Assembly: GCA_022605405.1 (NCBI GenBank)
Contig: JABYQQ010000013.1
Span: forward strand, 1,364,001-1,428,000
DNA length: 64,000 bases
Direction: 5' to 3'
From: Earliella scabrosa
Lineage: Eukaryota; Basidiomycota; Agaricomycetes; Polyporales; Polyporaceae
Of this stretch, positions 22,867 to 29,720 are shown in pieces (position 1 is the first letter of the stretch; every line of letters starts with the position of its first letter). The notes below the pieces were generated by a model. The model searched no databases. It was given only the letters and a program-made list of their open reading frames with translations, and had not been told where the DNA came from. Both the position numbers and the translations under genes were made by a program.

Positions 22867-25800
22867 CTACAACTGAATTGCCTGCGATTTCAACACACCC
22901 GCGCGCACCGAGCCCCCGGCGACAGGACGAGACAACTTGTTTTCCCCTGCCTTGACGATGAACGTTGCGCTCGCAAAACCGTCAAGGTTCGGGTTGCCTA
23001 GCGCATCGCATCATCGTTCAGCGCCCCGTCTCTCTAGCACGTCTAAGCAACACTCACTGATGTTCCGCATGGCGTAGTACGTCGCGTTCGCCTGGTTCGG
23101 ATCGAGCGTGAGCGTGAAGAAGCCGCGGTACGAGCCCTCGCTCCACTGCAGGTCCGTGTTGACGCTGACGAGGACCTGCGACTGTCTGTCTGCGTTCGCA
23201 GGGCTCACGTTCGACCCGAAGGACGAGCCCGAGGTCACTGCTGTGCCGGCAAACTCGACACCGATCGCGCCGTTTCCGGTGACGGGGTCGTAGCTGCGAA
23301 GTGAGCTTTTGAGTGTGTACCATCGTTACAGCATCGACGGAGGTCGACTGACGTGGTCGTGTCGTTCGGATCTACCTCGCTGTTAGGCGTGACTGAGCAT
23401 AGTGCTGAGGGTGATACTCACGGGCTAGGTCGCTGACCCAGTTTGCATGCGAGTCTCCAGAAAGGATCAAGGTGTTGCTGATCTTGCCGTTGTAGAGGTG
23501 GTCCAGGATACGGTTGCGATTTGCACGGTAGCCGTCCCAAGCGTCCTATGCGGTATGGTTATATAGACTTGTACGGCGCGGCAAGGTCCCAGGCTGTTAC
23601 TCAAACTTACCACATCGACTGCAAATGACGAGTCAGATATTCCAAAGGGCGTACATGAAGAATCAGGTCACCCACAGCTTCCGCTCTCGTTCAGTTGGGT
23701 GAACACGATCTGCTGCCTACGACGAGCACAATTCAGTTTCGACTCGGGGAGGTCGATGAGGTCAGGCACTTACCCCACAACGCGCCAGATCGCCCCACGA
23801 GTCTTAGACTCGGTCAGAGTGTCGAAGAACCCTGCGGTTAGGAAGATGAGTGCCAGGAGGATCGGAGAGGATGCATCGTACGCACAATCTTCTTGCTCGG
23901 GACCCATGAGCGACCGATTAGCAACGTCGGCAATGCTGTTGATGACTATGGTAAAGTGTCAGATCTGAGACCATTGTGTGACGGACGGCGTCATACATCC
24001 TACGAAACTAATCAGCATACCGAATTCAAGTCGTACTTATCTGGTTCATTAGGGGAAACGTACCAGTGTTGTAGTACAGCTGGACGAATGCAGTACCGAC
24101 AAGGACCCCGCGCGTGAGTATATGAGTAGAGGGCTCGGAGAGGGAGTGGCCTACATCTGTGATATCGCGGTCGTATTGCCCTGTACGATGATGTCGAATC
24201 AGTAAGAGGACTTCTCTTAATATTTGAGGCCTGATCACTGACGGGTGTCCAGCATTGTCAGGTCCTATGGTCCCACAAGAAAGCATTGGTCAACAGTCAC
24301 TCAAACAAGACTAAACTGCGGCGCATACCAGGAGCTTGCCGATTTGGAAGTTCCGCCAGATACGCAACTTGTCATCGGGATCTACCTGACGGATCGGCAT
24401 CCACTCGTGATACGCCCGGACTGCGGCGAGCTTCCTGTCCGTGAAGCACGCGCCAGAGGGCGAGAAACTACACCCAACACTGGTGTCGTTGCTGTCGGCG
24501 GTACCAGCTTTCCAGGCTTGGTCGGCAACTTCATGGTCATCCTAGATATGCCATCGCTTAGCTTAATCTAAATTGAATTGCACAAGATGCGACGCACCCT
24601 ACGCGGAGCCATGATAGGTGGATGTGTATGGCGGTTCATTGCAGCGAAGGCTACGCTAGAGGGTACTCACCAGACTGTAATCCAGGGTGCCTTCTCGTGA
24701 GCCGCGCGCAAGCTCACATCTGTCCGGTACTGGTTCAGACGGAGGCGGTAGTCTGCGATGGTAGCCAGTTCCCGACCGAGCGTCTGACGGCCGATTCTCG
24801 CGCTTGATGCCAATTGTTGTGAATGCCATATGAATGTTATACGACTGTGTTCGAGACCTACCCATTTCCGAGGGATTCATAGATCTTCCGATCAAGGTCG
24901 GCGAGAGAACCAGAGATGTAACGTGATGATTACTCACGTAGTCGCCAAGATGGACGAAGATCTCCGCAGAGGTGTTGTGTGCCGCAACGCCATAGGCATT
25001 GAAGTAACCTAACATGCAATCAGACAAGTTGATGAGTATTAATCAACTACGAGCAGCTCACCGGCTTGATACTGTGAGCAGCTGAATACCGCGAACATGA
25101 GCGGCTTGCCTCCATTGACCTCATCCGCAGGTGCTGTATGTATCCTCAGTTAGACGCGAATGACCATGCCTTCCGAGACGACTCACTATCGGGGCTCGAG
25201 ATCGTACGGGTGGCACCTATGGGGCTCACGGTCTCCGGGTTCGTGCAATCCGCGAACTGGAACCAGTAGTGGGTGTCCGGCTCCAGGTTCTGAGCCTCGA
25301 CCTTCAGCGTAAAGTCAACGTCGTAGCTGGTGAAGGCGGAGCCGGAGTCGATCGGGCTTCCGGACAGGTCCTCATTGTCAAAGATCTTGAACGAGACGCA
25401 AACTGGGATGCTTTGGTCCGGAAGAGTAGTACCGACAGGGACAGCCCGGGTCCACAGAAGGACAGAGGTGTTGAAGGGGTCACCCTGGAAGGCTACATAA
25501 GATGATAGGTACTGACTTGCAGACACACGAGGACGTACGCTCGCCACTGGTCAATGATACGCGTGCCCAGAAGATGTCAGTAAATTTCCATATTCTATTA
25601 AAGTGGTTGATACCTGAATGGGTAAAATTGATGCCTCCGTTGTAGATAAACGGGCTCTACAGCACAGCACGAGCTGTAAGCGCAGCCCATTATATCCGCA
25701 CGGGAAATGGCTCACGGTACTGAAGTCACCACCATAGAAAGTGGGGTAATGCTCGTCCGTGAATCCGTCGGAGCTTTCAGTGTTGCCGAGTTGCCGTTTC

Positions 25801-26022
25801 GCAAATTCAGCGTGACGTCTCAGAAGGGACTTCGTGTTGTGCGATAGCTGGTGATATACAAGTGGGCGCGTGAGTAAAACCACGAGAATGTCCGATGGCC
25901 TCTGGACTCACGTGGGGGGCGTTCGCAAACGGCGAGGAATAGGCCAGATTGCGATCAAATAGTTCGGTCGCGCTCGTGACAATAGAGAACGCAACGCTCG
26001 CAAGTAATGCTGCAGAGAGCAT
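22867..26022 (-). CDS. phoD: Secreted PhoD-type alkaline phosphatase/phosphodiesterase, copy 1, with extreme microexons
   Basis: Predicted 615-residue secreted metallophosphatase. I read 23 exons on minus with sizes 111, 132, 43, 8, 298, 72, 71, 23, 132, 1, 213, 22, 26, 16, 3, 60, 58, 41, 8, 124, 19, 236 and 131 nt. They sum to a complete frame of 1848 nt. The signal peptide is MLSAALLASVAFSIVTSA. PhoD features: VASGDP with LLWTRAVPV (N-terminal domain), FAVFSCSQY, VHLGDYIYES, WITVWDDHEVADQAW, SGDSHANWVSD and VEFAGTAVTS. Exons of note: VAS from 8 nt at 25539-25546, one nucleotide at 24598, 3 nt at 23997-23999, and FDV from 8 nt at 23611-23618. Without the 8-nt and 1-nt exons the frame breaks. 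The likely role is extracellular phosphate release, from family knowledge. The 3-nt exon is the least certain. Confidence 0.85.
24598..24598 (-). other. Predicted single-nucleotide exon (G) of PhoD copy 1
   Basis: On minus, the exon ending in GTC TG is followed by gtgagt...cgtag (72 bp, 24599-24670), then G, then gtgcgt...tctag (56 bp, 24542-24597), then GATGACCATGAA. Only TG+G+GAT gives W-D-D-H-E in frame. Treating the 129 bp as one intron needs TG-AG or GT-TA borders. Confidence 0.75.
25539..25546 (-). other. 8-nt microexon (VAS) of PhoD copy 1
   Basis: TGGCGAGC lies between two canonical introns of 67 and 54 bp. It supplies the end of a Val codon plus Ala-Ser of the VASGDP motif. Skipping it puts a stop right after the join. 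Confidence 0.8.
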
Positions 26023-26583: not shown

Positions 26584-29500
26584 CTAAGGCTGAGTCGGGC
26601 TCGCCTTTACCTGAGACTTGAGGACACCCGCGAGCACTTTGCCACCCGCTACGGGACGAGACAACCTGTTCGCTCCCGCCTTCACGATGAACGTCGCGCT
26701 CACAAAGCTATCAAGGTTCGGGTTACCTGTTGGCACCACGCGTCAGCATGCCGCTACTCTTGAAGGACCGCTGATAGCTGGATTAAGACTTAGCGGCGCG
26801 ACTCACTAATGTTCCTCATAGCGTAGTATGTGGCTACCGCCTTGTGCGGGTCAAGTGTGAGCGTGAAGAACCCGCGGTACGAGGCTTCGCTCCACTGAAG
26901 GTCTGGGTTCACGCTGACGACGGTTTGAGACATACGATCTGCATCTTCAGGCTTGATTCCCGCGCCAAATGCCGAAGTGGAAGTGACAGCCGTTCCTGCA
27001 AATTCTACTCCGATGGCACCATGTCCAGTGACTGGGTCGTACCTATAGCACAGAGCACATTGAGCCTCAAGCCTGGTTCAAGTGCGGCGGCGAACGCACG
27101 TGGTAGTATCATTGGGATCTTCGCGCGCATATAACCAACGTCAATTGGTGGTATGCCGGCTTGCCTATGCTGCGACACTTACGAGCCAAATCGCTAACCC
27201 AGTTGGCGTGCGAGTCCCCCGAGAGAATGATTGTGTTACTGATCTTGTGGCCGTACAAATAGTCGAGGATACGGTTACGGTTCGCACGGTAACCGTCCCA
27301 TGCATCCTGGCTAGCAGGTCAGTATCGTTCCCAAATCACGCGGCAAGGTCCACTGACGACGTCGACTATGAGGGAATACTTCAATGGCATCGACTATGAG
27401 CTTATGATATACACTCACATTCCCCAAACTCGTCCAGTTGCGTAAATACGATTTGCTGACTACGGATGTAGCGTGGTAAAATTCAGAATGAAGTAGTGAA
27501 CGGACTGAAGCAACTCGACCTACCCAACAATACGCCAGACAGCCCCTCGGGCCTTTGACGCCAACAGGGTTTGATTGAACCCTGATAGAGTCGCCTCAGT
27601 GAGTTTGCATGTACGGTGACATGGAAATGCGTACAAGACTCCTGAGCAGTGCCCATCAGGGAGCGGTTATTGACGGCGGCGATGGAGCTAATGACTATTC
27701 GGCGCTCCTTGAATGCGAGAAAACATGATGGGAGCATCGATATCACGTACAATCTAAAGAAATCAATCACACCCTGTGCATGAGCCTGGTATTGTTCGGG
27801 GGCGTCATACAACTACAACTCACCGGTATTGTAGTACAGCTAAGTTAGAGGTGATGTCAGGCTTCAGCACTAGGTCGGTGTCAACAAAGGGTTAGCACGT
27901 ACGTCGGTAATGTCACGTTCGTATTGACCTGGAAGGAAGTTGTAGGTAGCCAGGTACCAATGACTGTCCGTGCATACTCACGAGTATCAAGCATAGCCAA
28001 GTCCTGATCGCGACTTAGTCTCAGTCACTATGGGAGAGGCACAAGCGACTGACATACCAAGAGCTTGCCGATCTGGAAGTTGCGCCAAATACGAAGCTTA
28101 TCATCCGGGTCGACCTGACGGATAGGCATCCACTCGTGGTACGCCCTCACGGCTGCAAGCTTCCTGTCTGTGAAGCATGCACCTGACGGGGAAAACCTGC
28201 AGCCCACACTGGTGTCGTTGCTATCAGCGGTGCCCGCCTTCCATGCCTGGTCGGCGACTTCATGATCGTCCTACAGTTGATGCTGAGGTAAAGACACGGA
28301 GAGCGTTTGAAACGGGGACGACTGACCCTATCATAGCATGTTCAACATTGTATGATCAGCGATGTATCTAGGAGCACTTACCAGACAGTAATCCACGGAG
28401 CCCTCTGGTGGGCGGCTACCAAGCTTACATCCGTCCTATACTGGCCCAAACGTTGACGATAGTCCGCTATAGTAGCGAGTTCACGGCCCAGCGTCTGACG
28501 ACCGATCGGCGCACTATGTGGAAGTCGGTCAGCGTCAGAAGCCTATGAAACGCATGTTATGACATACCCATTCCCGAGATCCTCGTAGATCTAGACACTA
28601 ATCATTAGCCGCATTCAGGTCGTTTGGATCGCACGGAGCCGTACATAGTCTCCCAGATGGACAAAGATCTCTGCCGAGGTGTTGTGCGCAGCGACCCCAT
28701 ATGCGTTGAAGTAGCCTGTGCAAAGCGAGGTAAGTAACATCGAAGCATTAGACTCAGTCAGAGAACCCTACCATTATAGTAGCGGGAGCAGCTGAACACC
28801 GCAAACGTAAGAGGCTTGCCTCTGTTGACGAGATTCGCAGGCGCTATGCATCTCTTCGTTCAGCACATTCTCCTAGCTCTCTAACAGCTGACGTACTGTT
28901 CGGGCTGGGGATGGTCCTCGTGGCGCCAACCGGGCTGACGGTTCTCGAGTTGGTGCAGTCTGCGAACTGGAACCAGTAGCGAGTGTCGGGCTTCAGACGC
29001 TTTGCCTCGACTTTGAGTGTGAAATCGACGTCATAGCTCGTGAACGCCTCGCCGGAGTCGACAGGATGGCCGAACAGCTTCGGATTGTTGAATATCTTGA
29101 ACGAAACACAAACGGGAATGCTCTGGTCAGGAAGAGGCGGTCCGACGGGCACAGCGCGGGTCCATAGCAGCACGGAGGTGTCCCAAGGGTCGCCCTATAC
29201 ACATGTTGAGAGAATGCATCCCGATTAGCCCGGACAGTGCGTGATACTCACGCTGGCCACTGAAACGCAGAATGTGTTGAATCAAATGGTGAGCTTCCTA
29301 GCATCTTAGTAGCAGCGAACCTGAGTGGGTGAAATTGATCCCGCCGTTGTAGATCCAAGGACTCTGTGCGATGCGTCAACGATCACGTTAAGGCTGTTTC
29401 GAGTTCTGCACTGACGTTGCTGAAGTCACCCCCATAGAACGTCGGGTAATGCTCGTCGGTGAACCCGTTCGAGCTCTGAGTGTCGTCAAGCTGTTGCCTT

Positions 29501-29720
29501 TTCACGAAGTCGACATGACGGGCTTTGAGGGAACGTGTGTCGTGTGACAGCTTGGACCAAGCAAATACTGGATCAGTTCGAGTTTGTGCGACACGACCGC
29601 GACATAACTCACATGAGGGGTGTTCACGAAGGGAGAAGAGTAGGCCAGGTTACGATCGAACAGCTCTGTGGCTCCAGTGGCCACACCGAGGGCTACGCTC
29701 GCTATCAGAATGGAGAGCAT
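26584..29720 (-). CDS. phoD: Secreted PhoD-type alkaline phosphatase/phosphodiesterase, copy 2, same microexon structure
   Basis: This is a tandem paralog of the gene at 22867-26022, in the same orientation and 561 bp upstream of it. Wherever I traced exon joins, the intron positions and phases match copy 1. These include the 8-nt VAS exon (29252-29259), the 23-nt IYEDLGNG exon (28568-28590), the 1-nt exon (28327), the 22-nt exon ending in an R codon, the 3-nt exon (27751-27753) and the 8-nt FDV exon (27358-27365). The signal peptide is MLSILIASVALGVATGA. Motifs FAVFSCS, HLGDY, WDDHEVADQAW, SGDSHANW and VEFAGTAVTS are intact. The C-terminus differs (QVKASPTQP instead of QAIQL) and runs past an AG/gtaaag site, which could be a remnant or alternative donor. 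No disabling change was seen, so I treat it as functional. Confidence 0.83.
28327..28327 (-). other. Predicted single-nucleotide exon (G) of PhoD copy 2
   Basis: On minus: GTC TG, then gtaagt...gatag (54 bp), then G, then gtcagt...tgtag (56 bp), then GACGATCATGAA. This is the same arrangement as at 24598 in copy 1, although the intron sequences have diverged. It restores Trp-Asp-Asp-His-Glu. Confidence 0.75.

What the first reader, a model, noticed from the sequence alone, without database searches (positions are those of the whole stretch)
24542..24671. A single-nucleotide exon in PhoD copy 1, needed for the catalytic WDDHE motif
Seen directly: on minus, the frame reads ...ATT ACA GTC TG, then 128 bp, then GATGACCATGAA. 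One G is missing for Trp-Asp-Asp-His-Glu. Inside the gap there is exactly one AG-G-GT at 24599/24598/24597. It splits the gap into two canonical GT-AG introns of 72 and 56 bp, both normal sizes for this genome. The alternative, one long intron, needs non-canonical TG-AG or GT-TA ends. Known: a 1-nt exon has been described in a plant gene (Arabidopsis APC11), and fungi have stwintrons, but I do not know of a fungal 1-nt exon of this type.
Basis: partly seen in the sequence, partly recalled or inferred. Interest (0 to 1): 0.9.

Follow-up and report, generated by a model that had tools for sequence, protein, structure and literature searches.

The report
One-nucleotide exon in a mushroom phosphatase
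In a wood-decay fungus, one letter of a phosphatase gene appears to sit alone between two introns and must be spliced in to make a conserved motif; both tandem gene copies show this, and many database gene models of related mushrooms go wrong at exactly this spot.

Summary
Confirmed and strengthened. The window matches Earliella scabrosa (Polyporales): a deposited protein equals, 615 of 615, the copy-1 model containing the 1-nt exon. In copy 1 the gap 24670-24542 is intron 72 + G (24598) + intron 56. The tandem paralogue, not mentioned in the finding, has the same layout: 54 + G (28327) + 56. Silent sites between the copies are near saturation and introns show no clear residual similarity, yet both keep AG-G-GT. 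It is the only in-frame choice and rarely arises in shuffles (0.6%, 0.12%). Of 125 other annotated homologues listed, 92 have an indel at this junction against 0 of 12 transcript-like sequences; ordinary junctions 2-18%. So the layout is probably old and widespread in Agaricomycetes, and often mis-annotated. It is not the first: 1-nt exons are published for plant APC11 and VPS55 and, in 2026, Fusarium CYP621A (also AG-G-GT). Nine literature searches showed no basidiomycete case, though most listed papers were not opened. Missing: a read across the junction, and relatives' genomic DNA. Likely mechanism: two ordinary GT-AG introns removed one after the other.

The parts
24598..24598 (-). exon 10 of PhoD copy 1: the single nucleotide G that completes Trp (TGG) of WDDHE
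   Evidence: only in-frame AG-N-GT combination; deposited protein P0001 identical to the model; coordinates rechecked
24599..24670 (-). intron 9 of copy 1, 72 nt, GTGAGT...CGTAG
   Evidence: donor score above 93% and acceptor above 85% of 40 other introns
24542..24597 (-). intron 10 of copy 1, 56 nt, GTGCGT...TCTAG
28327..28327 (-). exon 10 of PhoD copy 2: the same single-nucleotide G
28328..28381 (-). intron 9 of copy 2, 54 nt, GTAAGT...GATAG
28271..28326 (-). intron 10 of copy 2, 56 nt, GTCAGT...TGTAG
22867..26022 (-). PhoD copy 1, 23 coding exons, 615 aa, stop codon included
   Evidence: Pfam PhoD 3.7e-103 and PhoD_N 1.4e-19
26584..29720 (-). PhoD copy 2, 23 coding exons, 619 aa, stop codon included
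   Evidence: Pfam PhoD 6.3e-101 and PhoD_N 7.6e-20
23997..23999 (-). 3-nt exon 15 of copy 1 (GAT)
   Evidence: same place in copy 2; 90 of 125 annotated relatives have an indel here, 0 of 12 transcript-like
27751..27753 (-). 3-nt exon 15 of copy 2 (ATT)
25539..25546 (-). 8-nt exon 4 of copy 1 (copy 2: 29252-29259)
   Evidence: indel in 25 of 122 and 25 of 123 annotated relatives at its two ends
23611..23618 (-). 8-nt exon 19 of copy 1 (copy 2: 27358-27365)
   Evidence: indel in 52 and 50 of 125 annotated relatives at its two ends

Best explanation
The G at 24598 (and at 28327 in the paralogue) is a true single-nucleotide coding exon between two ordinary short GT-AG introns. Because the 3' splice site of intron 9 and the 5' splice site of intron 10 are one base apart, the spliceosome can hardly occupy both at once. 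The two introns are therefore removed one after the other by intron definition, most likely intron 9 first, since its donor is the stronger; its AG|G acceptor leaves the G joined to the upstream exon directly before the intact donor of intron 10. The product reads GTC TGG GAT GAC CAT GAA (V-W-D-D-H-E). Skipping the G shifts the frame and gives a stop codon in exon 11 of 23, so only the complete two-step product encodes the enzyme. Shown here: sequence layout, its conservation in the paralogue, the in-frame requirement, splice-site quality, and an identical deposited protein. Inferred: that it happens in vivo in this species, the order of removal, and its presence in many Agaricomycetes.
For: (1) The paralogue has the same layout although 181 of 258 fourfold sites differ, NG86 dS is 2.8, and the 22 intron pairs align at z between -1.7 and 2.3 against shuffles. 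(2) The single G is the only in-frame choice of 3 combinations in copy 1 and of 6 in copy 2. (3) The AG and GT around the G have the highest scores of all internal AGs and GTs in both copies; the margin is narrow for the acceptor of copy 2 (5.19 against 5.09). (4) The 40 other introns of the two gene models are 50-80 nt, median 57; one undivided intron would be 129 or 111. (5) Deposited E. scabrosa protein P0001 equals the copy-1 model, 615 of 615. (6) Indel at this junction in 92 of 125 other annotated homologues against 0 of 12 transcript-like ones (Fisher p 5e-7); ordinary junctions 2-18%; 8-nt exons 20-42%; 3-nt exon 72%. (7) Of 28 inserts of two or more residues directly after the Trp, 17 begin V[SRGC], i.e. 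GTN-NGT, a donor directly after TGG; 8 of 10 one-residue inserts are W, C, Y or L, as a donor used 4 nt late (TG GTNN|GT) predicts. (8) Bacterial PhoD 2YEQ aligns across PW...WDDHE without a gap, and WDDHE is contiguous in 80 of 80 bacterial loci kept; 16 of them hold the search pattern WITVWDDH itself.
Against: No RNA read or cDNA of this species was seen. A transcript-supported JGI pipeline does not guarantee a correct model: Ganoderma leucocontextum was annotated that way (PMC8955403, passage), and its two PhoD proteins P0055 and P0094 are broken here. The deposited copy-2 model P0016 lacks the exon. I built the models by hand, comparing the two copies, so copy 2 is not wholly independent of copy 1. 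33 of 125 annotated homologues show no indel. No relatives' genomic DNA could be read, so wide presence rests on proteins. The branch-site motif YTRAY is missing from three of the four introns concerned, and from 17 of the 40 others.
Confidence: 0.93

Rival explanations
1. One undivided intron of 129 nt (111 in copy 2) with non-canonical ends (TG-AG or GT-TA), giving the same mRNA.
For: It would give the same protein, so P0001 does not exclude it.
Against: The 40 other introns, as I modelled them, are GT-AG and 50-80 nt. It leaves unexplained why both diverged copies keep AG-G-GT with the best internal acceptor and donor, and why 17 of 28 mis-annotated inserts begin with a donor directly after TGG.
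Confidence: 0.03
2. A sequencing or assembly slip (a lost G in a G run), or a pseudogene, with the internal AG-G-GT a coincidence.
For: A 1-nt loss next to a G run is a common error type (general knowledge).
Against: Both copies miss the same base, the rest of both frames is open over 615 and 619 codons, and 92 of 125 homologue models, mostly of other species and assemblies, have an indel at the same place. Shuffle chance 0.006 and 0.0012.
Confidence: 0.01
3. One canonical intron, direct join GTC TGG ATG, and a -1 ribosomal frameshift at TGG that re-reads the G and restores W-D-D-H-E.
For: A -1 slip after TGG on the directly joined mRNA would give exactly V-W-D-D-H-E (read from the sequence).
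Against: 12 of 12 transcript-like homologues have an uninterrupted frame through WDDHE, so there the mRNA itself holds the base, if they are transcripts. It does not explain AG-G-GT in both copies. No search for slippery sites was made.
Confidence: 0.01
4. A stwintron: an inner intron interrupting a splice element of an outer intron.
For: Two introns almost touching is the look of a stwintron, a known fungal kind (listing with starts of abstracts).
Against: In a stwintron nothing between the two is kept. That removes all 129 nt and loses the frame; and both introns here have complete GT and AG of their own.
Confidence: 0.01

Closest known systems
Fusarium CYP621A 1-nt exon (Nelson and Syed 2026, PMC12940212; parts 1 and 2 of 3 of the text read)
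   Same: Single G between AG and GT (AGGGT), inside a codon of a conserved enzyme motif, 139 nt in the Fusarium graminearum gene, wrong in all deposited transcripts there but one; supported there by RNA reads
   Different: Ascomycota, cytochrome P450, central base of a Gly codon; here Basidiomycota, PhoD phosphatase, third base of a Trp codon, two tandem paralogues, and a 3-nt exon in the same gene
Arabidopsis APC11 1-nt exon (Guo and Liu 2015, PMC4674806; parts 1 and 2 of 3 read)
   Same: Constitutive 1-nt exon needed for frame; the authors favour stepwise removal under intron definition
   Different: Plant; the nucleotide is A; within a stretch of 422 nt; shown by cDNA and mutated reporters
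Plant VPS55 1-nt microexon (PMC8831610; passages read)
   Same: Conserved over a large clade and missing from reference annotations
   Different: Plant; in several lineages alternatively included; a paralogue clade lacks it
Stwintrons (PMC5639578, two passages; others only in the listing)
   Same: Two fungal U2 introns in contact, sequential removal
   Different: There nothing is retained between them and one splice element is split
Recursive splicing ratchet points (PMC8605326, start of abstract in the listing)
   Same: Acceptor and donor adjacent, first splice leaves a donor ready for the second
   Different: Zero-length, in long Drosophila introns; here one coding nucleotide is kept and introns are short

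Membership tests
Single-nucleotide exon | exactly one nucleotide between a 3' AG and a 5' GT | tested here: met
   24598 and 28327
Single-nucleotide exon | both flanking introns are complete spliceosomal introns of normal size | tested here: met
   72/56 and 54/56 nt against 50-80 in 40 other introns; splice-site scores within their range; by sequence only
Single-nucleotide exon | the nucleotide is needed for the reading frame and conserved protein sequence | tested here: met
   (skipping gives a stop in exon 11)
Single-nucleotide exon | nucleotide present in the mature mRNA | tested here: inconclusive
   identical deposited protein P0001 and 12 of 12 transcript-like homologues intact; no read of this species available
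Stwintron | inner intron splits a splice element of an outer intron and nothing in between is retained | tested here: not met
   both introns have their own GT and AG; removing all 129 nt breaks the frame
Recursive-splicing ratchet point | acceptor directly joined to donor (zero-length exon) | tested here: not met
   one G lies between
Recursive-splicing ratchet point | stepwise removal with an intermediate | not testable with these tools
   needs RNA
PhoD phosphatase | PhoD and PhoD_N domains over the curated cut-off | tested here: met
   345.7 and 70.8 bits for copy 1, 338.4 and 71.7 for copy 2; solved relatives 2YEQ, 9UYA by sequence

The most novel reading that the evidence does not exclude
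The 1-nt exon is an ancestral, class-wide feature of PhoD in Agaricomycetes, kept since before the split of the orders sampled together with a 3-nt exon 93 residues further on, so that the conserved Trp-Asp-Asp-His-Glu motif of this enzyme across a fungal class depends on obligate two-step splicing; about three quarters of the annotated proteins listed here have a changed length at the motif for this reason.
Probability: 0.7. Interest if true: 0.72.

Novelty: new member of a known kind. Interest (0 to 1): 0.62.

Why it matters
One-nucleotide exons are known from few nuclear genes (two plant genes and one fungal P450 subfamily in the papers seen). This adds a second fungal gene family, and a first basidiomycete case as far as my searches show, with a natural duplicate test: two copies whose introns no longer resemble each other and yet keep the exon. 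The failure rate of gene models rises as the exon shrinks (2-18% at ordinary junctions, 20-42% at 8-nt exons, 72% at the 3-nt, 74% at the 1-nt exon), a direct measure of how annotation fails. It means that many deposited mushroom PhoD sequences lack or distort a conserved active-site motif (its catalytic role recalled), which matters to anyone who expresses, models or ranks these enzymes. It also offers a compact system for asking how a spliceosome handles two splice sites one base apart.

Tried and rejected
Plasmid collection search: no match, as expected for a fungal gene. Third PhoD-like gene of this genome, contig 8: a distant relative with YDDHE and, by my reading, no intron at that place; not followed. 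Scans for relatives' DNA: viral contigs gave no relative; genome contigs gave bacterial records in the 80 loci kept of 290, used as length markers without introns (the first expression caught 24, the recount found WDDHE in 80 of 80). Whether breaks at the 1-nt and the 3-nt exon go together in the same model: no (69 with both, 23 and 21 with one, 12 with neither, Fisher p 0.26). Transcript-like proteins are not free of indels elsewhere: 0-3 of 9-12 per junction. Branch-point motif as evidence: not informative. YN00 dS failed with an error. One homologue, P0004, counts as unbroken by indel although its residues are wrong (WISAQDDHE), so 92 of 125 is slightly low. By regular expression on the first 120 only, 85 of 113 annotated were broken, P0001 being among the 28 intact. 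Of the 12 papers holding 'microexon' and 'basidiomycet' I looked into one (PMC11121469, passages), so an unlisted fungal case could be in print. Considered and rejected: stwintron, frameshift, assembly slip, single non-canonical intron (see rivals).

Full report
What was checked. The finding claims that PhoD copy 1 on the minus strand needs a single-nucleotide exon to encode WDDHE. Reading the strand confirms it: ATT ACA GTC TG, then GTGAGT...CGTAG, then G, then GTGCGT...TCTAG, then GATGACCATGAA. The introns are 72 and 56 nt and the G is at 24598.

The decisive addition is the neighbour. A second PhoD gene lies directly upstream on the same strand. It has the same arrangement, 54 nt + G (28327) + 56 nt. 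In full models, built by hand by comparing the two copies, both genes have 23 coding exons; only exons 1, 2 and 23 differ in length (111/132/131 against 108/135/143, stop included), and exons 3 to 22 are equal, among them exons of 1, 3, 8 and 8 nt. The two proteins share 508 of 614 aligned residues. But 181 of 258 fourfold-degenerate sites differ and the NG86 dS is 2.8 (the YN00 estimate failed), so silent positions are near saturation; the 22 intron pairs score between z = -1.7 and 2.3 against shuffles, the highest being intron 9. Introns that have otherwise lost their likeness have kept AG-G-GT.

Is it chance? Of the combinations with both introns 40 nt or longer (3 in copy 1, 6 in copy 2), only the single G restores the frame. 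With weight matrices from the 40 other introns, the AG and the GT around the G score best of all internal AGs and GTs in each copy, narrowly so for the acceptor of copy 2 (5.19 against 5.09). In 20,000 dinucleotide shuffles per gap, AG-G-GT with both introns at 50-80 nt appeared in 0.6% and 0.12%. The other 40 introns run from 50 to 80 nt, median 57; an undivided intron would be 129 or 111.

Organism and deposited proteins. The best database match is a protein of Earliella scabrosa (Polyporales) that equals the copy-1 model in 615 of 615 residues, through both the 1-nt and the 3-nt exon. It may come from a transcript-supported JGI model: PMC8955403 (passages) lists strain CIRM-BRFM 1817 among published genomes and describes that pipeline for Ganoderma leucocontextum. 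Against this, the two PhoD models of that very Ganoderma are broken at this junction, so transcript support neither follows for P0001 nor guarantees success. The deposited copy-2 protein P0016 equals my copy-2 model without the 16 residues VSLVAAHQRAPWITVW and without the 3-nt exon, and is otherwise identical.

Relatives. I collected 138 proteins from two searches (the best 120 listed in each, of 7763 and 7912 matches). I set apart P0001 and 12 'transcript-like' proteins: unnamed, from jgi or lgn sources only, on contigs of 1,978-9,722 bases, with one open frame of 525-617 residues; that they are cDNA is my inference. Aligned to P0001, 92 of 125 annotated proteins have an indel within 7 residues of the 1-nt exon, against 0 of 12 transcript-like (Fisher p 5e-7). 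At the 3-nt exon it is 90 of 125 against 0 of 12. At the 8-nt exons it is 20% and 40-42%; at the remaining junctions 2-18%, except the one 6 residues from the 3-nt exon, which shares its window (71%). Transcript-like proteins show 0-3 indels per junction, none at the 1-nt or 3-nt exon. The kinds of failure fit a missing base: Val-Trp missing, as if the GTC of the Val codon were the donor (24 of 120), a donor 4 nt late, or intron 10 kept. Of 28 inserts of two or more residues after Trp, 17 begin with V[SRGC], a GTNNGT donor directly behind TGG; the other 11 do not. 33 annotated proteins show no indel; whether these genes lack the layout or were built from transcripts I could not see. The reach over several orders of Agaricomycetes is read from species names, their orders recalled.

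Length markers. Bacterial PhoD of known structure (2YEQ) aligns here without a gap, and WDDHE is contiguous in 80 of 80 bacterial loci kept, 16 of which hold the search pattern WITVWDDH itself.

How it works. Intron definition with stepwise removal, as proposed for APC11 (PMC4674806), fits best: the two splice sites are one base apart, so they can hardly be served together (inference). The intron-9 donor scores above 93% and 97% of the 40 others; that of intron 10 above 42% and 30% before, and 40% and 20% after, removal of intron 9, so intron 9 probably goes first (inference). Skipping the G gives a stop after 349 and 337 residues, in exon 11 of 23; keeping intron 9 gives a stop directly after TGG in both copies. 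Such products should be removed by nonsense-mediated decay (general knowledge).

Place in the literature. Nine searches were made. Plant APC11 (PMC4674806, parts 1 and 2 of 3) and VPS55 (PMC8831610, passages), and Fusarium CYP621A (PMC12940212, parts 1 and 2 of 3) have nuclear 1-nt exons. The Fusarium paper calls itself the first for a fungal gene. A placozoan mitochondrial single-base exon also appears in the listing. No listing named a basidiomycete or PhoD case; the library holds open-licence papers only, and most listed papers were not opened. So this is a new member of a known kind, with a natural duplicate and probable wide conservation as its special points.

Noticed in passing
23997-23999 and 27751-27753: Both copies also have a 3-nt exon (GAT, ATT) in NT-xx-I; 90 of 125 annotated relatives have an indel there, 0 of 12 transcript-like ones.
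   Followed up: partly
25539-25546, 23611-23618 (copy 2: 29252-29259, 27358-27365): Two 8-nt exons in conserved places (VASGDP and FDVDAW); indels in 20% and 40-42% of annotated relatives.
   Followed up: partly
26584-29720: The deposited protein for copy 2 (P0016, 602 aa) equals the model minus 16 residues before DDHE and minus the 3-nt exon, and so lacks the Trp of WDDHE.
   Followed up: yes
   Followed up: no
L009 (contig 8): A distant PhoD-like gene with YDDHE, by my reading without an intron inside that motif.
   Followed up: partly
28328-28381 and 24599-24670: Intron 9 is the pair with the highest residual similarity between the copies (z 2.34, of 22 pairs); may be chance.
   Followed up: no
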